The notes under the pieces are model-generated. The model searched no databases and had not been told where the DNA came from. It saw only the letters and a list, made by a program, of their open reading frames with translations. From Longibaculum muris (GTDB taxonomy: Bacteria; Bacillota_I; Bacilli_A; Erysipelotrichales; Coprobacillaceae): a stretch of DNA of 64,000 bases. The translations under genes were made by a program, and so were the position numbers. Within the stretch, counting starts at the first letter, position 1. Each line of letters begins with the position of its first letter. Positions 1 through 6,520 of this stretch are shown here, one piece after another. The stretch lies in contig NZ_SMCQ01000005.1 of the NCBI RefSeq assembly GCF_004343035.1, positions 1 to 64,000 on the forward strand, read 5' to 3'.

Positions 1-16
1 ACAATATTAGCTACAT

Positions 17-48
17 AAAAAAATGAAGTTGTCTTATCGACAACTTCA
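17..48 (-). terminator. Terminator of the peptide-maturation operon
   Basis: A 10-bp perfect stem (24-33 with 39-48, loop of 5) is followed on the minus strand by seven T residues. It lies just after the stop of the last gene of the operon, so the operon appears to end inside the window. Confidence 0.85.
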
Positions 49-66
49 ATAATAATTTTAATTATT

Positions 67-927
67 TCACCTGTCTACTTGACAGGGGCGGTTCACTTCT
101 TTTAGTTTAATTATTTTATTTATAATTTCATTTACATATATATTTGAATTTGATAAATACATTCTCACAAATAATAATCTTATATCTAAAATTAATCTTT
201 GAAATTCAAAAACAAAATCTTCCAATATACGTTTATTTTCTCTGCTACTCTCATCCATTAAAATATTAATTAAATTCACTCTACAAGCTAAATAACCTCC
301 CGAAAAAAAAGTAGAGTTCATTTCAGCAAATATATTCTTATCAGTATTTTCTTTTATAGATTTGATAAATAAGTCAAATTTCTTATTATAATTTTCTAAA
401 GAATTAGGAATAGTATTTGCAATTTCTTTTGTAGTTATATTCTTTTTCCCTTTTTTACATTTAAAAATTTTATATACATATACGTCATCTTTATATATTA
501 ATTCTAAATTTTCTAATTTACTCTCAATTTTTATTGGTTGTATCAAAGGAATAAACGAATCCTTTAAATAAAGCTCTTTATTCCTTTGTTTCACAAGTAT
601 GTAGTGATACTTTTTCTTTATTTTATTAGATACTTCAAAAAAATCATGATAATTTAAATAGGATAAGGGTGAATGAACTATAATCGGTAAATCATGTTCT
701 AGATTTTCTTTATTTATTTCAACAATACAATATCCTAAAGAAGATAAGCCATCTTTCATTATATCCATAATGGGTGATATAATTGCTCCCGTTTTTTTAT
801 CATTATCAATTTTTAAAATTTTTTCTGATAAATATAGCGATTTTTCTTGAATATTCTTATCACCAAAATATTCAATTAATGTCCCACTAAAACATGAGGT
901 ATATAAAGAATTACTTTGTTTATTCAA
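67..927 (-). CDS. BtrH-like papain-fold protein (possible acyltransferase or peptidase)
   Basis: A 286-residue protein, last gene of the peptide-maturation operon. The N-terminus has SCFSGTLIEYFG (Cys12), which resembles the nucleophile region of BtrH N-terminal domains, where Cys is followed by a short helix. About 95 residues later comes YHYILVK (His108) and then LYLKDS (Asp123), the usual His and Asp spacing of C39/BtrH-type folds. In butirosin biosynthesis BtrH moves an acyl group from the carrier protein BtrI to an aminoglycoside; a carrier-like protein is also encoded in this operon, so acyl transfer to a peptide is a reasonable inference. Processing of the peptide is the alternative. 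The start is a TTG overlapping the stop of the permease gene by 4 bases. The C-terminal half is not recognised. Confidence 0.6.
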   Translation of the reverse strand: MNKQSNSLYTSCFSGTLIEYFGDKNIQEKSLYLSEKILKIDNDKKTGAIISPIMDIMKDGLSSLGYCIVEINKENLEHDLPIIVHSPLSYLNYHDFFEVSNKIKKKYHYILVKQRNKELYLKDSFIPLIQPIKIESKLENLELIYKDDVYVYKIFKCKKGKKNITTKEIANTIPNSLENYNKKFDLFIKSIKENTDKNIFAEMNSTFFSGGYLACRVNLINILMDESSRENKRILEDFVFEFQRLILDIRLLFVRMYLSNSNIYVNEIINKIIKLKEVNRPCQVDR

Positions 928-1709
928 TACGTATCAAACGCTCCTTCCCTTCTAATGATTTTTAAAGCTCTACCAAATAAAAAAGAACCAATCATTATCC
1001 AAAATAAATTAATACATATATATCCTAACCATAATTCCCAACCTACTGTTAATTCTAGATATATTTTTCTACATATCTCTATTCCCAAACTGTATGGTAT
1101 TAAAGCGACAATAATATTATCCAATGGCTTCATTACATTTGATATAAATATTAGTAATGTTTGAACAATTAATATTAAACTACTTGATTTTTTCTCTTTC
1201 AAAACAATAGTGCTTAATAATAATCCTATTCCATACATACCAATTATTGCTGGTATATTTAAAATTATTGAAACAAAAAAGAATACAATATCTCTAATTG
1301 TTAAATTAGTTAAAAAAAACATCAAAATAATAAGTGCTAATATAATTAAAAAATTCGTTAATAAATTAATAATTAATTTAATAAAGTATAATATTTGTAT
1401 TTTAAAACTACTTTGCATTTTTTGCTCTAAAATACCTTCGCTTGCTTCCGAAGAAACTATTGATGTAGAAAATCCAAGTGCTAATGAAGAAAACTGCCAA
1501 AACAAAAAACCAATAAAAAACAAAATATTTCCATCATTTGAAGATATATCATAATATATCTTTAATGGTGATCCCTCATTAAAGAAAAATGCAATCAAAA
1601 ACACACCTACTATCATTATAAAATCACTGATCATTCCTACTTTATATTGCAATCTGGATAAAAAAGTAATCCTTAATTCTATTTTAAGTAATTCATAGTA
1701 TTTTTTCAT
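924..1709 (-). CDS. ABC-2 type transporter permease
   Basis: A 261-residue membrane protein with about six hydrophobic segments, the size and layout of ABC-2 family permeases that export peptides or antibiotics. The first segment starts near residue 25 (IMIVGVFLIAFFF) and the last lies near residue 230. It overlaps the end of the ATPase gene by 17 bases and has a good ribosome site (AAGGAG) inside that gene, so the two are translationally linked. It probably forms the export channel for the matured peptide with the preceding ATPase. The ATPase and permease are separate polypeptides and no C39 leader protease domain is attached, so leader removal must come from elsewhere, probably the S8 protease in this operon. 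Confidence 0.85.
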   Translation of the reverse strand: MKKYYELLKIELRITFLSRLQYKVGMISDFIMIVGVFLIAFFFNEGSPLKIYYDISSNDGNILFFIGFLFWQFSSLALGFSTSIVSSEASEGILEQKMQSSFKIQILYFIKLIINLLTNFLIILALIILMFFLTNLTIRDIVFFFVSIILNIPAIIGMYGIGLLLSTIVLKEKKSSSLILIVQTLLIFISNVMKPLDNIIVALIPYSLGIEICRKIYLELTVGWELWLGYICINLFWIMIGSFLFGRALKIIRREGAFDTY

Positions 1710-2418
1710 TTTCTTCTCCTTGATTTTCTATAAAAATTTCAGTTAAACTATCTACCTCTAATTTTGAATCTATTGTTTTTATGACTTGACCATTTTTTAA
1801 AAACAAATATCTTGTGCTTATATCCGCCAAAAAACTTAAGTCATGCGATGATATCACTAAAACTTTCCCTCTTTTTTTAGACATATCTATTAAGATATCT
1901 TTTATTAAATTAATATTCTCTATATCTAATCCCTCTGTTGGTTCGTCTAAAATAAGATATTTACAATTACAACAAAAAACAGCTAATAGTTTAACTATTT
2001 TTTTCTGACCTGTAGATAATTCTTCAACTTTTCTTACTAACTCATTTTCAAATTTAATATATTTTAAGTAATAATTAAGATTTTCTAGTATTTGCTTTTT
2101 CTTAGTTCCTTTCAAAATTCCATAGTAAATAATATTATCTTTTGCTGTATTTTTATATGACAAATCTCTTTCATTTGTGGATTGATATGCAACATTATTA
2201 TGAGCCCATTCTAAATAATCAGATTTATTTTCATTATTGACATGTATTGATCCCCCATTTATATCTAAGATACCACTGATTACTTTCATTAATGTTGTTT
2301 TTCCAGCACCATTATTACCAACCAATGCAACAATCTGGTTATCTTCAAGTGAAAAATTAATTTCTTTTAATATACGATGTTTTTTTATATCCTTTTGAAT
2401 GTCTTCAACTATTATCAT
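1693..2418 (-). CDS. ABC transporter ATP-binding protein
   Basis: A 241-residue nucleotide-binding subunit. It has a Walker A motif (GNNGAGKTT, about residues 34-42), a degenerate signature LSTGQKK, a Walker B followed by the catalytic Glu (YLILDEPTEGLD) and a switch His (VISSHD). The start at MIIVEDIQ is preferred over an ATG four codons upstream because GGAGGC lies 4 bases before it. It pairs with the ABC-2 permease directly downstream. Dedicated export of the operon's peptide, or self-immunity, are the likely roles. Codon use is as AT-rich as the rest of the operon. Confidence 0.88.
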   Translation of the reverse strand: MIIVEDIQKDIKKHRILKEINFSLEDNQIVALVGNNGAGKTTLMKVISGILDINGGSIHVNNENKSDYLEWAHNNVAYQSTNERDLSYKNTAKDNIIYYGILKGTKKKQILENLNYYLKYIKFENELVRKVEELSTGQKKIVKLLAVFCCNCKYLILDEPTEGLDIENINLIKDILIDMSKKRGKVLVISSHDLSFLADISTRYLFLKNGQVIKTIDSKLEVDSLTEIFIENQGEENEKIL

Positions 2419-2485
2419 ATATGCCTCCATAAATTTATCTGATTTTCTTCTTTAACTATACTATTTCAAAACGTAATTACTATTC

Positions 2486-4271
2486 CTATCTTTCACAAAA
2501 ATATTCAATCATATGATTATATATTGATTCAAATTTTCCATTGATTAATATTGGCTTACCTAATCTTTTATATAATTTTTCCTTGACAATTTCAATTTCA
2601 ATATCTGATAAGCTCTTTTCTTCTTTGTCAAATATTACCCAATCACTATTTTTTTGATACGGATATAAAATCAAAGCTCCAACATATGAATTTAGATAAT
2701 TTTCTAAATATAAAATAGTACGTTTAATGAAATTTATATCATCATTACTATTAATGACTAAATATATCAAATCCGGTTGACTAGCTATTAGTAAAGATTC
2801 TTGTTCAAAAGAAAGAAAATTTAAATTATTAAAAGAATATGGTATTGTCTGTGATTGAGTCCCCAAAATCATTATCTCACTATCTTTTTCTATTGAGGAT
2901 AATAACTTATTATATGTCAAAATTTGTTTATAAATATTGCCATTTAAGTCAATACCATAGCCAGATGGAAACATTTTATCAAATCCAAAAAGATATGAAG
3001 ATGGTTCGGTTCCAAATTGTGAAAACTTATATCCACTTTTTTTTAATTCTCTTCTTAATCCAAGTTGTAAAGTAAATTTCCCCTGTCTTGGTGATGTCCC
3101 ACAAATTGCAACAGTTGGTATTGATAACACATTTAAACTTCCAAGATTATTATCAATAACATTAAAATTCTTATATAATTCGTTAGAACTAAATACATTT
3201 AATCCAGATAAAATATTTCTTTTTACCAAGTCGTTATACTTTTTTAAATCGTCAAAACAATAAATATTTTTTCTATTTACATAACAATAATCTAATAAAT
3301 ATTTAGTATAATCATAATTAAAAATTTGATTTATTTTATCTAAACGTCCAACTATAAGGGTATCAAAATCATTATATTTTGATATTTGATTTATATTAAA
3401 GAGTTTAAAAGCACCCAAAATTCGCTTATTGTTTACTGTTCTCTCATTATAATAATTATTAACATCAAAAATATATTTTATATTAAAATCTAAAAGATCT
3501 TTATTTTCTAACAAAACAATTGTTTCCTTATTTAACGGAAATATAGCAGCATCATTTATATAGTCAATATTTGCATTTTGTTCAATACTTTCTATTTCGA
3601 ATTCCATTATATTGATGGCATCCTTTTTCAATTGCTTAAAAATATCTTCAAACTGATAATTTAAGTTTAATAAATCTAATATTTTTATCGTAATGTATGG
3701 CGATGCAAAACTCGATCCGCTTACATTTTTATAATTTCCATCTTTCCATGGTAATAATTGTTTGCCACCAAATCCTAATATATTAATATTAGAATTATTT
3801 AGAACAATATAATCATTTATTTTTTTACATTTTAAAGAGAACTGAACTCCTATTACTTCTGGAAGGCAAGCGGGATATGAAATTGCCCCCTCATTATCAA
3901 AAGAAGATACAATAAATATTTTTTCTTTGTATAATAATGAACATATTTTTTTTATTTCTTTTTTCATACTCGGACAAATTATTCCACTACTTATATGAAT
4001 CAAATCTATATCTTTCATATTCATATATATATAATAATGTATCATATAATTTTTCTTCGTTTGTAAAAGAATTTTTTCCATATATATTTACTGTATATAT
4101 TTCTGTATCAAATGTATTATTCTGTATTATATAAGTTATAGCAGTCCCATGTCCAATATAGTCTTCGAAAGGATTATATTGATTAAATAAATTAATTCTT
4201 TTTATTCTATTCAAATTAATATTTTTGTTATTGATATCAACCCCTGTATCAATAATAACAATCTTTCTCAT
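2486..4271 (-). CDS. Frameshifted subtilisin-like (S8) protease fused to a peptide-maturation P-loop-like domain
   Basis: Two overlapping reading frames together encode one protein. The first (start ATG 4271, ribosome site AAAGGAG) carries the catalytic Asp in IIDTGVD and His in YIGHGTA. The second (ending 2486) carries the oxyanion-type segment SSFDNEG and the catalytic Ser in SGSSFASP. The frames meet at an 11-base AT tract near 4028, where gain of one AT unit, or loss of one base, would rejoin them. After the protease domain (about 240 residues), the second part continues to a C-terminal domain with GTSPRQGKFTLQL followed by QFGTEPSSYLFG. From memory this pattern belongs to clostridial peptide maturation proteins (TIGR04066-like). 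The protease could remove the leader of the small peptides. The gene may be phase-variable, decayed, or affected by a sequencing error. Confidence 0.75.
4023..4033. repeat. AT dinucleotide tract at the protease frameshift
   Basis: Five and a half AT units (11 bases) lie exactly where the two frames of the S8 protease overlap. Expanding the tract by one unit would join the Asp/His part to the Ser part, so strand slippage here could switch the gene on and off. Confidence 0.7.
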
Positions 4272-4297
4272 CAAATTATCTCCTTTCCCCCCAAAAA

Positions 4298-4317
4298 TTT
4301 ATAAAGTAACTAAGGAT
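4298..4317 (+). repeat. Left arm of a perfect 20-bp inverted repeat
   Basis: This arm is the exact reverse complement of 4488-4507. The two arms enclose 170 bases that contain the 27-residue precursor gene and its ribosome site. Identity stops abruptly on both sides and no target-site duplication is visible. Confidence 0.85.
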
Positions 4318-4368
4318 ACATAAAAAAATCTAATTAATTTTATTTTCTACTATACTTATAATTACTTT

Positions 4369-4452
4369 TTAGCTACACTTATTATTGCCTTCACCATATA
4401 AAACAACACTGTTATTTGTTGATTTAGTTGGTTTAACTAATTTCTTTTTCAT
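4369..4452 (-). CDS. Candidate 27-residue ribosomally made precursor peptide
   Basis: A small gene with a strong ribosome site (AGAGGAG, 7 bases before the ATG). The product begins MKKKLVKPTKS, is rich in Asn and Ser in the middle, and ends LYGEGNNKCS with one Cys next to last. The basic KKKLVKP start recalls short clostridial bacteriocin-like precursors found with acyl-carrier-related maturation proteins (CLI_3235 type; recalled, not searched). It lies between the carrier-like gene and the protease gene and inside a perfect inverted repeat. A role as substrate of the maturation system is inferred from size and position. With only one Cys, thioether ring formation of the usual multi-Cys kind is unlikely. 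Confidence 0.6.
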   Translation of the reverse strand: MKKKLVKPTKSTNNSVVLYGEGNNKCS

Positions 4453-4487
4453 AAAGATATCTCCTCTAAATTTTAATGTAATTGTTA

Positions 4488-4507
4488 ATCCTTAGTTACT
4501 TTATAAA
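4488..4507 (-). repeat. Right arm of a perfect 20-bp inverted repeat
   Basis: Exact reverse complement of 4298-4317. The arm overlaps the space between the stop of the carrier-like gene and the ribosome site of the small peptide gene. Confidence 0.85.
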
Positions 4508-4510
4508 GTC

Positions 4511-4741
4511 TTACTTTAGCATATCCTGAATCAGACAAAGAAAATCATTAAATGAATGTAATTCCCTAAAGTCTAAATTTTGCTCGAATAAATCCAATAA
4601 AAATTCTTTTTGAATTTCAGCAATTAAAACAACCAATTGCATAGAATCAATATTTAATTTTATTTTTTTATTTTCATCTGTTATATAAATCCCTGACAAT
4701 TTAAAGATATTTATTAATGTTTTTTCAACTTCATCTTCCAT
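4511..4741 (-). CDS. Acyl carrier-related protein of a peptide maturation system
   Basis: A 76-residue acidic protein with the carrier-protein core. NIDSMQLVVLIAEIQKEF contains Ser33 in a DS motif, the expected 4'-phosphopantetheine attachment site, followed by the amphipathic helix II. The length matches stand-alone carrier proteins. It differs from the fatty-acid ACP in lacking the DSLD context (DSMQ here). No ketosynthase or adenylation gene is nearby, so the acyl or aminoacyl group would have to come from general metabolism or an unlinked ligase. Clostridial families of 'acyl carrier-related' proteins occur beside precursor peptides, which fits this setting. It may hand a group to the BtrH-like protein of the same operon. 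Start has AGGAAA upstream. Confidence 0.72.
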   Translation of the reverse strand: MEDEVEKTLINIFKLSGIYITDENKKIKLNIDSMQLVVLIAEIQKEFLLDLFEQNLDFRELHSFNDFLCLIQDMLK

Positions 4742-4770
4742 GTCTCTTTTTCCTTTCTATATTATGTATT

Positions 4771-4869
4771 TTATTTTTTAGGTTTATAATATCCCATTGG
4801 AGAACAGCAGTAATCTGATTTAATTACATATCCAACAATCATAGCTGTTATTTTTTTTAACAATTTCAT
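4771..4869 (-). CDS. Small AgrD-like peptide (32 residues), first gene of the operon
   Basis: This short gene has one of the strongest ribosome sites in the region (GGAAGGAGG, 7 bases before the ATG). The product starts MKLLKKITAMIVGYVIK, an amphipathic basic helix, followed by SDYCCSPMGYYKPKK. A hydrophobic leader, a Cys, an aromatic pair and a basic Pro-Lys tail resemble cyclic-lactone autoinducer precursors of the AgrD type. No agrB-like gene lies in the operon, so processing would need a protease encoded elsewhere or the S8 protease here. The other option is that it is a second substrate of the maturation system. No paralogue is seen in the window. Confidence 0.62.
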   Translation of the reverse strand: MKLLKKITAMIVGYVIKSDYCCSPMGYYKPKK

Positions 4870-4894
4870 ATTTTTACCTCCTTCCTTTTTCTGT

Positions 4895-4923
4895 ATTATA
4901 TTACAAAAAAAAAACGTTTTTAA
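4895..4923 (-). promoter_or_regulatory. Promoter of the peptide-maturation operon
   Basis: A consensus -10 TATAAT (4900-4895) follows a weak -35 TTAAAA (4923-4918) at 17 bp. The weak -35 suggests dependence on an activator, which fits the direct repeats next to it. Confidence 0.6.
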
Positions 4924-4925
4924 TT

Positions 4926-4955
4926 ATTATCATCGAGCGTTAAAAAATTATCATC
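4926..4955 (-). promoter_or_regulatory. Two 9-bp direct repeats 12 bp apart (activator site candidate)
   Basis: GATGATAAT occurs twice on the minus strand (4955-4947 and 4934-4926) with exactly 12 bases between. The second copy ends 2 bases before the -35. The 9-12-9 layout is that of LytTR-domain regulators such as AgrA, ComE and PlnC. The repeat sequence itself is not one I can assign to a known regulator. Confidence 0.55.
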
Positions 4956-5287
4956 AAATGTCGTTTTGACATAATAATATTATTTATTTTTGTTCTAAAT
5001 ATATATTTCTTTTATCATTCTAAACTATATTCAAAAAATATTATAAAAAAAGATCTGTAACAATATATTTATGAGTAACTAAATATATCAGGGGATTTTT
5101 TGAGCACTTCATTTTATTGGGGTGCTCTTTCCTTTCACTTTATTGCTGATTTCAATTATTTTGGGGTAGATACTCTGTTTCCCTTTTTTATTATTCTTAA
5201 TTGTTTTATTATTTAGTTATAAAATCTACAGAAAGATAAAAGGATAATTATCTCCCCTCCGACAGTTCGATTAATTATCCTGTTCCA
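4956..5287. other. Gene-free AT-rich stretch with two hairpins
   Basis: No credible gene is seen here. A 6-bp stem, GAGCAC with GTGCTC (5102-5127), is followed by a short T run on the plus strand. A 9-bp stem, GGATAATTA with TAATTATCC (5242-5280), has a 21-base loop and a T-rich exit on the minus strand. Both may be ends or terminators of the transposon relics next to them. Confidence 0.4.
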
Positions 5288-5490
5288 TTGAACAATACGA
5301 TAATAATAAAATTAAACAAAAAAATCAAGTCTATTAATCAATTTAGTTATGATGAAATCATTAATTCAATCAATTTTCATCTTATACATTGTCCAAACTG
5401 TCAATTATCCGATTGGTCAACTCATGCCTACTATTCTAGACACGTTGATTTTTTTAATCGTCGTCATACAGTTCGCATACTCAGAGTGAA
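5288..5490 (+). pseudogene. 5' fragment of a zinc-finger transposon-associated protein (DUF6431-like)
   Basis: From a TTG start the frame reads about 65 sensible residues: a region with HLIHCPNCQLSDWSTHAYYSRHV and then RRHTVRILRV. A single CPxC pair followed by HAYYSR and a RILRV strand is typical of the N-terminus of transposon-associated DUF6431-type proteins. The expected second Cys pair after RILRV is missing, and the sequence then runs into the antisense of another transposase fragment. It is therefore truncated by a rearrangement. Assignment is from pattern memory only. Confidence 0.5.
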
Positions 5491-5647
5491 CAGGGGAAAC
5501 ACAAACAGGACAAATATCATCATGAGATGTTGCCTTTACATAAATAGTAACTGTATCGTTATCATCTTTCCAGTCATAAACAATGAAATCATCACCAAAA
5601 AGTTTTTCATTCAAATCGATCTTATTATATTTCATAAACATCACCAT
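5470..5647 (-). pseudogene. 5' fragment of an ISL3-type transposase
   Basis: The minus-strand frame begins MVMFMKYNKIDLNEKLFG and reaches ICPVCVSPVHSEYANCMTT, the first half of an ISL3-family zinc-binding domain (CPxC, then HS.Y). After about 60 residues it passes into antisense of the neighbouring plus-strand fragment and stops. Only the N-terminus remains, out of an expected 400 or more residues. The two relics are joined head to head near 5460-5490. Confidence 0.55.
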
Positions 5648-5834: not shown

Positions 5835-6335
5835 CTATTTTTCTTTCTTCCCTTTTTTCTTCTTCTCTTTCTTGATTTCCTTTTCTTCAAATGGATCCTT
5901 GTATTCTTTCACACTCAGTTTATCCATCGCTATATCATATGCTTCTTGCTCCCTTATATATTTTGCGACTGTTTGATCATTTAGTCCTACTGTACTTACA
6001 TAATATCCTTCTGCCCAAAAATGTCTATTCCCATATTGATATTTTAAATTGGCATGCCTATCAAACATCATCATTGCTGACTTCCCTTTGAGATATCCCA
6101 TAAATGATGATATGCTTTCTTTTGGTGGTATCATCACCAGCATATGAACATGATCTATCATCAAGTGTCCCTCTATTATTTCTACTCCTCTATATCTGCA
6201 TAATCTTCTCAATATTTCTCCCAAGTCTTCTCGATATTGATTATATATCGCTTTTCGTCTATACTTAGGTGTGAACACAATATGGTATTTACACATCCAT
6301 TTTGTGTGTGCTAAAGAATTCGCTTTTTTAGCCAT
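5835..6335 (-). CDS. tnpA: IS200-family transposase TnpA
   Basis: A 166-residue HUH single-strand transposase. It has KYHIVFTPKYRR near the start, the metal-binding HUH motif in IDHVHMLV, GYLKGKSAMM, and the catalytic Tyr in VAKYIREQE. The start MAKKANS is chosen because GGAAAGGTGA lies just upstream; an upstream ATG (6383) would place the ribosome site inside the gene. All key residues are present, so it looks active. The last 20 residues are a run of Lys and Glu (KKEKKKKGKKEK), longer and more basic than usual for the family. Confidence 0.9.
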   Translation of the reverse strand: MAKKANSLAHTKWMCKYHIVFTPKYRRKAIYNQYREDLGEILRRLCRYRGVEIIEGHLMIDHVHMLVMIPPKESISSFMGYLKGKSAMMMFDRHANLKYQYGNRHFWAEGYYVSTVGLNDQTVAKYIREQEAYDIAMDKLSVKEYKDPFEEKEIKKEKKKKGKKEK

Positions 6336-6520
6336 AGTCAAATCACCTTTCCTTTCTTTTAATGATAGCTTGAACAACTTCATTATACCGGAAAGGTGAT
6401 ACTACTGTATAACTTTTTATTTCTCCACCCGCATAGCAGGTGGTTTTTTGTTTCACACATTTCATGTGTTCAACTGACTAAAGTCTATTTGTTCAAATTT
6501 TCAATTTGAACAGTATAAAC

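What the first reader, a model, noticed from the sequence alone, without database searches (positions are those of the whole stretch)
4369..4452. Unannotated 27-residue candidate precursor gene
The gene has a strong ribosome site, a basic KKKLVKP leader and a CS ending and lies between maturation genes. It is far below usual gene-calling limits.
Basis: partly seen in the sequence, partly recalled or inferred. Interest (0 to 1): 0.65.

Follow-up and report, generated by a model that had tools for sequence, protein, structure and literature searches.

The report
Relic RiPP precursor inside RNA stem
A tiny overlooked gene in a gut bacterium is a real relative of the starter peptides that bacteria turn into small modified peptides, but its operon looks partly broken, and in the four related operons found the starter gene is enclosed by a matching pair of inverted sequences.

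Summary
The 27-codon gene is real (minus strand, 4452-4369) with a strong ribosome site. Four loci with an S8-TIGR04066 fusion were found, window included (others: L014, L027, L046). All four have a short precursor ORF right after the acyl-carrier gene, ending in a shared V/I/M-x-x-Tyr-G/T/E...Cys pattern. In the window the locus is probably decaying: no radical SAM enzyme of this type was found in the genome, the subtilase is split by a frame break in a TA run, and the last ORF ends inside a repeat at the contig edge. L014 shows independent decay; L027 and L046 look intact. New: a perfect 20-bp inverted repeat, unique in the genome, encloses the precursor gene. The other three fusion loci have repeats of different sequence at the same place; two classical loci do not. 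This suggests a long-range RNA stem setting precursor dosage. The fused domain has a DUF1611/DgcN-like fold and the carrier keeps its Ser, hinting at peptide acylation. Mechanism is inferred throughout. Interest 0.5.

The parts
4369..4452 (-). 27-codon RiPP-precursor homologue MKKKLVKPTKSTNNSVVLYGEGNNKCS
   Evidence: ATG, AGGAG 8 nt upstream; position and V-x-L-Y-G...C motif shared with precursors of L014, L027, L046
4488..4507 (.). 5' arm (in the transcript) of a perfect 20-bp inverted repeat enclosing the ORF, just after the ACP stop codon
   Evidence: the longest inverted repeat with 60-400 nt spacing in the window (next 14 nt); unique in the genome
4298..4317 (.). 3' arm of the same inverted repeat, just before the ribosome site of the subtilase gene
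4511..4741 (-). acyl-carrier-like protein, 76 aa, with the DS(M) carrier serine motif
   Evidence: TIGR04069 15.7 bits E=0.016 (below cut-off 70), PF00550 14.9 bits (below cut-off 20.8); BLASTP to L046 ACP E=7e-7; Ser aligned in 4 of 4 fusion-locus ACPs
3987..4274 (-). subtilase (S8) N-terminal part with catalytic Asp and His motifs; ATG at 4271
   Evidence: QhpE NF049966 27.9 bits
2486..4081 (-). subtilase C-terminal part (catalytic Ser) fused to a TIGR04066 (DUF1611-fold) domain; out of frame with the N-terminal part
   Evidence: TIGR04066 64 bits E=1e-17, QhpE 46.3 bits; intact in-frame homologues in L027 and L046
4023..4033 (.). 11-nt alternating TA run inside the overlap of the two subtilase frames; likely place of the frame break
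   Evidence: frame comparison
4771..4869 (-). 32-aa ORF MKLLKKITAMIVGYVIKSDYCCSPMGYYKPKK, first gene of the operon; looks AgrD-like (by eye) but matches no AgrD model
4895..4923 (-). promoter-like site TTAAAA-17-TATAAT upstream of the operon (10 of 12)
   Evidence: consensus match only; 13 sites found against a shuffle mean of 11.1
1693..2430 (-). ABC transporter ATPase
   Evidence: PF00005 E=4e-27
924..1709 (-). ABC-2 type permease
   Evidence: PF01061 30 bits
67..927 (-). 286-aa ORF of unknown function whose 3' end lies in a repeat found at the edge of four contigs
   Evidence: (no family)

Best explanation
The ORF is a genuine homologue of RiPP precursor peptides of the CLI_3235/CcpM kind, in a subclade where the leader-cutting subtilase and the TIGR04066 domain are one protein. 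In intact relatives the expected pathway is: the precursor (Lys-rich leader, a V/I/M-x-x-Tyr junction, a Cys-rich core) is modified by the radical SAM enzyme, the subtilase domain cuts near the Tyr junction, the ACP and the DUF1611/DgcN-like TIGR04066 domain add a group, and ABC transporters export the product. In the transcript a long-range stem formed by the two arms would enclose the precursor ORF and set its dose or stability relative to the enzymes. In the window this pathway is probably no longer complete: no radical SAM enzyme, subtilase split by a frame break, core reduced to GEGNNKCS with one Cys, last gene running into a repeat. Shown: ORF, ribosome site, gene order, motif, inverted repeats, missing radical SAM gene, frame break. 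Inferred: every enzymatic step, the cleavage site, the function of the stem, and that the locus is decaying rather than specialised.
For: Homology of position: ACP followed by a short ORF in window, L014, L027 and L046; the next gene is the S8-TIGR04066 gene in three of four (in L014 two ABC genes lie between). Motif. Intact fusions of 611 aa (L027) and about 600 aa (L046) align with the window's C-part at 32-37% identity. L031's precursor, in a classical locus, matches TIGR04065 at 35.5 bits (cut-off 26) and sits after an ACP gene too. Decay: frames; no radical SAM match in G000 while the same query rings in G488, G663 and weakly in G304; repeat at the ORF 67-927 end. Parallel decay in L014: a radical SAM C-terminal remnant (31 of 104 identical to the L046 enzyme, E=2e-11) fused to an AAA-type ORF, precursor frame break, different S8 frame break. 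Stem: best uninterrupted helix between 80 nt upstream and 120 nt downstream reached by 0/1000, 0/1000, 8/1000 and 0/1000 dinucleotide shuffles in window, L014, L027, L046; none of 32 non-precursor genes of six loci reaches their energies; the minimum-energy fold closes this stem in 4 of 4.
Against: The 27-mer matches no family model, TIGR04065 included. Only four fusion loci were found, two of them broken. With other statistics the stem is weaker: identity score 126/1000 for L046 and 3/1000 for L027; whole-duplex energy 302/1000 for L046 and 12/1000 for L027. The arms in all four loci were seen by eye before the tests. Three non-precursor genes also reach 5% or less (window S8N 5/100, L014 ABC2 2/100, L046 rSAM 1/100). 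The frame break could be phase variation or recoding rather than decay.
Confidence: 0.7

Rival explanations
1. The locus is functional and specialised: a minimal precursor that needs no radical SAM step, with the subtilase switched on and off by slippage in the TA run (phase variation) or by recoding.
For: The 11-nt TA run sits in the overlap of the two frames, and one TA unit more would join them (reading of frames only); ribosome sites, ACP serine and ABC genes are intact; both small ORFs keep strong ribosome sites.
Against: The run is short; L014 has a frame break at a different sequence and is otherwise clearly broken, so a conserved recoding site is not seen; no radical SAM enzyme, and the last ORF runs into a repeat.
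Confidence: 0.15
2. The inverted repeat is DNA-level: an invertible cassette or a small mobile element that carries the precursor gene, so that inversion switches the gene off.
For: Perfect 20/20 arms 170 nt apart, unique pair in the genome; inversion would leave the neighbouring genes intact.
Against: Arms differ in sequence in all four loci and one has a bulge (L027); no recombinase gene common to the four loci was noticed in the ORFs listed (not searched for by profile); no obvious target-site duplication around the window arms by eye.
Confidence: 0.1
3. The 27-codon ORF is a chance reading frame in an AT-rich gap.
For: No family match; one Cys; 27 codons; AT-rich region (30% G+C in the window).
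Against: One of only two intergenic ATG ORFs with a strong ribosome site among 656 small ORFs; motif and position shared with precursors of three other loci.
Confidence: 0.05
4. The 32-aa ORF (4869-4771, ...SDYCCSPMGYYKPKK) is the real product of the operon, and the 27-mer is a leftover.
For: It is first in the operon, has two Cys and a very good ribosome site.
Against: No relative of it was noticed in L014, L027 or L046; its end resembles AgrD peptides of the same genome and of G075 (by eye), which suggests signalling; TIGR04223 does not match it.
Confidence: 0.15

Closest known systems
CLI_3235 / CcpM-type peptide maturation clusters (TIGR04065, TIGR04066, TIGR04068, TIGR04069), e.g. SacP23 of Paenibacillus polymyxa (PMC10731318) and the Roseburia intestinalis L1-82 cluster (PMC4573289)
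   Same: ACP-related protein, TIGR04066-type protein, subtilase, ABC transport, short Lys-rich precursor. PMC4573289 (passage read) reports no obvious structural gene in the Roseburia cluster, a parallel to this overlooked ORF; PMC10731318 passages read.
   Different: Here subtilase and TIGR04066 are one protein, the precursor is 27 aa with one Cys and does not match TIGR04065, no radical SAM enzyme was found, and the ACP keeps the carrier serine that the four classical-type ACP-related proteins examined lack at that place.
Selective RNA processing and stabilization operons (PMC4423207, abstract read; PMC8219983, search listing)
   Same: RNA structure at gene ends inside an operon that could set unequal amounts of neighbouring gene products.
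   Different: Those abstracts describe stem-loops at 3' ends; here the two arms lie on either side of one ORF and enclose it. No transcript data here.
DUF1611 proteins including N-acetyltransferase DgcN (PDB 2obn, 2g0t, 7xrj)
   Same: Foldseek match of the modelled L046 fusion, E 1e-12 to 4e-9, target TM 0.66-0.72.
   Different: 12-15% identity; model of moderate confidence (mean pLDDT 68.6); function not transferable from this alone.

Membership tests
TIGR04065 CLI_3235 bacteriocin precursor | match to the family model over its cut-off (26 bits) | tested here: not met
   27-mer: no match at E<=10. The L031 peptide from a classical locus passes (35.5 bits); L027 and L046 peptides do not.
TIGR04065 CLI_3235 bacteriocin precursor | short Lys-rich leader, Tyr/Phe junction, Cys-rich core (motif partly recalled) | tested here: inconclusive
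   Lys-rich start and V-x-L-Y-G present; only one Cys.
CcpM-type cluster | TIGR04066-family protein | tested here: inconclusive
   64 bits, E=1e-17, below the curated cut-off of 200.
CcpM-type cluster | TIGR04069 acyl-carrier-related protein | tested here: inconclusive
   15.7 bits, E=0.016, below cut-off 70.
CcpM-type cluster | radical SAM maturase (TIGR04068 or related) in the cluster | tested here: not met
   none in the operon; no match in G000 with the L027/L046 enzyme profile, which rings in three other genomes of the same call.
CcpM-type cluster | subtilase in the cluster | tested here: met
   present but frame-split.
AgrD cyclic lactone autoinducer (for the 32-aa ORF) | match to TIGR04223 | tested here: not met
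   G000 matches are on contigs 29 and 19 only.
RiPP | ribosomal precursor shown to be modified into a product | not testable with these tools
   needs mass spectrometry.

The most novel reading that the evidence does not exclude
The fusion loci are a distinct RiPP type in which one protein cuts the leader and its DUF1611/DgcN-like domain then acylates the freed N-terminus from a true acyl-carrier protein, and in which the precursor gene is carried in an RNA cassette whose paired ends (a stem around the whole ORF, as around ribosomal RNA precursors) free or protect a small precursor mRNA.
Probability: 0.15. Interest if true: 0.8.

Novelty: new variant of a known kind. Interest (0 to 1): 0.5.

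Why it matters
It gives a precursor to a rare, poorly studied branch of peptide-maturation operons whose structural genes can be too short for gene callers (a published Roseburia cluster of the classical kind was left without one). It also points to two testable ideas: a stem that encloses one ORF of an operon, and peptide acylation by a protease-DUF1611 fusion with a working carrier protein. The best places for tests are the intact loci L027 and L046, not the window.

Tried and rejected
Family scans of the 27-mer (Pfam, NCBIfam) and TIGR04065 in the own genome: nothing. One genome-contig scan with the window's S8 C-part: nothing; the second, with A2, gave only L019, the same contig as L014, named there as an uncultured Bacilli MAG, isolate Lapin-032. 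Plasmid search with the window's S8 C-part and with the L018 TIGR04066 protein: no match; viral contigs with A2: none. Plasmid search with the L027 fusion gave only subtilase matches (17 records); three were looked at (P. sordellii twice, C. difficile once): other systems with two or three radical SAM genes; their small peptide genes have no enclosing repeat of note (scores 9, 10, 7; no shuffles were run for these three). Rfam: no RNA family in 3900-5400. AgrD idea for the 32-mer: not supported by the model, only by eye. A three-way alignment with the L018 protein was poor and was dropped. Whole-duplex energy and identity scores were weaker tests of the repeat than the single-helix energy; all three are reported.

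Genome counts for the fusion (full-length matches): 1 of 98 (own; six other matches were partial, 24-25% identity), 2 of 392 phylum genomes including own (five further matches partial, 23-25%), 2 of 315 order genomes including own, 2 of 43, 3 of 346 including own (the other 32 matching genomes had subtilase-region matches only); the samples overlap. The query changed between calls (single protein in 9 and 13, profiles later).

Paper searches for a stem or inverted repeat around a precursor gene: no relevant title in the 15 of 19 listed; 0 papers; for the cluster type. The library holds only open-licence papers, so absence there is weak.

Full report
What is there. The ORF at 4369-4452 is on the minus strand and encodes MKKKLVKPTKSTNNSVVLYGEGNNKCS. 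AGGAG lies 8 nt before its ATG; it and the 32-aa ORF at 4771-4869 are the only two intergenic ATG ORFs with such a site among 656 small ORFs in the window. The operon, read on the minus strand, is: promoter-like site, 32-aa ORF, acyl-carrier-like protein, the 27-mer, subtilase N-part, subtilase C-part plus TIGR04066, ABC ATPase, ABC-2 permease, 286-aa ORF.

Relatives. The operon is rare. With the window's S8 C-part, a sample of 98 relatives showed no full-length match outside the own genome, and 392 phylum genomes one (G304). Profile searches then added G488 (315 order genomes) and G663 (43 genomes of the order of G304); 346 class genomes added no further one. Four fusion loci in all: window, L014 (G304), L027 (G488), L046 (G663). 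In L027 and L046 the fusion is one open frame and a radical SAM gene stands before the ACP gene. In each of the four a short peptide ORF follows the ACP gene: 27 aa in the window; in L027 39 aa ending ITGYTENTNCGSKCHC; in L046 53 aa ending MGVYEADCWTGGCYSGGCYTKSCKK; in L014 a frame-broken ORF whose downstream frame reads VQLYGSAETGVPNVCTCDKCVCDKCNC.

Motif. From the three relatives: [VIM]-x-[GLV]-Y-[GTE] before a Cys; A at the third place was added from the classical family. The 27-mer fits (VVLYG...C). 0.19% of 200,000 shuffles of it fit, and 1 of 656 small ORFs in the window, the 27-mer itself. The motif was framed after I had seen all four peptides, although each class is filled by the other three. 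The peptide of a classical locus, L031, passes TIGR04065 and fits only a wider form of the motif; that of L018 does not fit.

Is the window locus intact? Probably not. The catalytic Asp and His motifs are in one frame and the Ser in another, with an 11-nt TA run in the overlap. A profile of the L027 and L046 radical SAM enzymes finds nothing in the own genome but rings in the three others; the two strongest of those matches are the profile's own members. The 286-aa ORF ends in a sequence present at the edge of four contigs, and a transposase of the IS200 kind lies upstream of the operon (5835-6383, PF01797). L014 is broken in its own way: a radical SAM remnant joined to an AAA-type ORF, a frame break in the precursor and another in the subtilase. 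The two breaks in the subtilase differ in place and kind, so I favour decay over a conserved recoding signal. L014 is from a metagenome bin and assembly error cannot be ruled out there.

The enclosing repeat. A perfect 20-bp inverted repeat (4298-4317 and 4488-4507) encloses the 27-mer; it is the longest of its spacing class in the window (next 14) and the pair is unique in the genome. The three relatives have different sequences at the same place: ACTAACCTATACTA (L014), ATGCTGCTAT with a bulged extension (L027), GTGCCCAGC (L046). Single-helix energies: -29.4, -23.6, -18.8, -21.9 kcal/mol for window, L014, L027, L046, reached by 0, 0, 8 and 0 of 1000 shuffles; the classical L018 and L031 precursors 67 and 794 of 1000; the 32 other genes none beyond -16.5. 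By identity score L046 is not significant (126/1000) and L027 is 3/1000; by whole-duplex energy L046 is not (302/1000) and window, L014 and L027 are 3, 6 and 12 of 1000. The arms were noticed by eye before testing. Different sequence with the same pairing and place in four loci argues for structure, but four loci are few. Precedent for RNA structures that set subunit amounts exists in clostridia (PMC4423207, abstract; PMC8219983, listing), there as 3' stem-loops.

How it may work. AlphaFold of the L046 fusion with a four-row alignment (mean pLDDT 68.6, pTM 0.55) matches DUF1611 structures and N-acetyltransferase DgcN best. The carrier proteins of the four fusion loci keep the DS motif (DSM in the window, DSL in the rest), while the four other ACP-related proteins compared (two of L031, L018, L032) have LP or SP there. 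Together these suggest acylation after cleavage; this is inference only.

Verdict. A real precursor homologue, overlooked because of its size, in a probably decaying copy of a rare fused variant of a known operon kind.

Noticed in passing
window 4771-4869 (minus): 32-aa ORF MKLLKKITAMIVGYVIKSDYCCSPMGYYKPKK heads the operon; its end resembles AgrD peptides of this genome and of G075 by eye, but TIGR04223 does not match it.
   Followed up: partly
L014 15253-16620: AAA-type ORF whose C-terminal part is a remnant of the radical SAM maturase: looks like a deletion junction, in a metagenome bin.
   Followed up: partly
window 1-95: The first 95 bases are identical at the edge of contigs 5, 6 and 17 and nearly so (two bases shorter) at contig 39: end of a repeated element; ORF 67-927 stops inside it.
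   Followed up: partly
L027 9341-10092: AgrB (PF04647, 97 bits) and an AgrD-like gene (26.4 bits, over cut-off) stand upstream of the intact L027 operon, suggesting quorum control; P. sordellii plasmid loci L028 and L030 also have agrB and an autoinducer gene near radical SAM and S8 genes.
   Followed up: partly
L028, L029, L030: Plasmid operons with two or three radical SAM genes, a subtilase and small hypothetical peptide genes in P. sordellii and C. difficile; possibly unstudied RiPP systems.
   Followed up: no
L031 2192-2443 and 4308-4577: Two ACP-related genes in one CLI_3235-type operon, the second directly before the precursor; the record is filed as a phage but looks bacterial.
   Followed up: no
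window 5417-5647 (minus): 76-aa ORF next to an IS200-type transposase; looks like a transposase fragment by eye, no significant family match.
   Followed up: no
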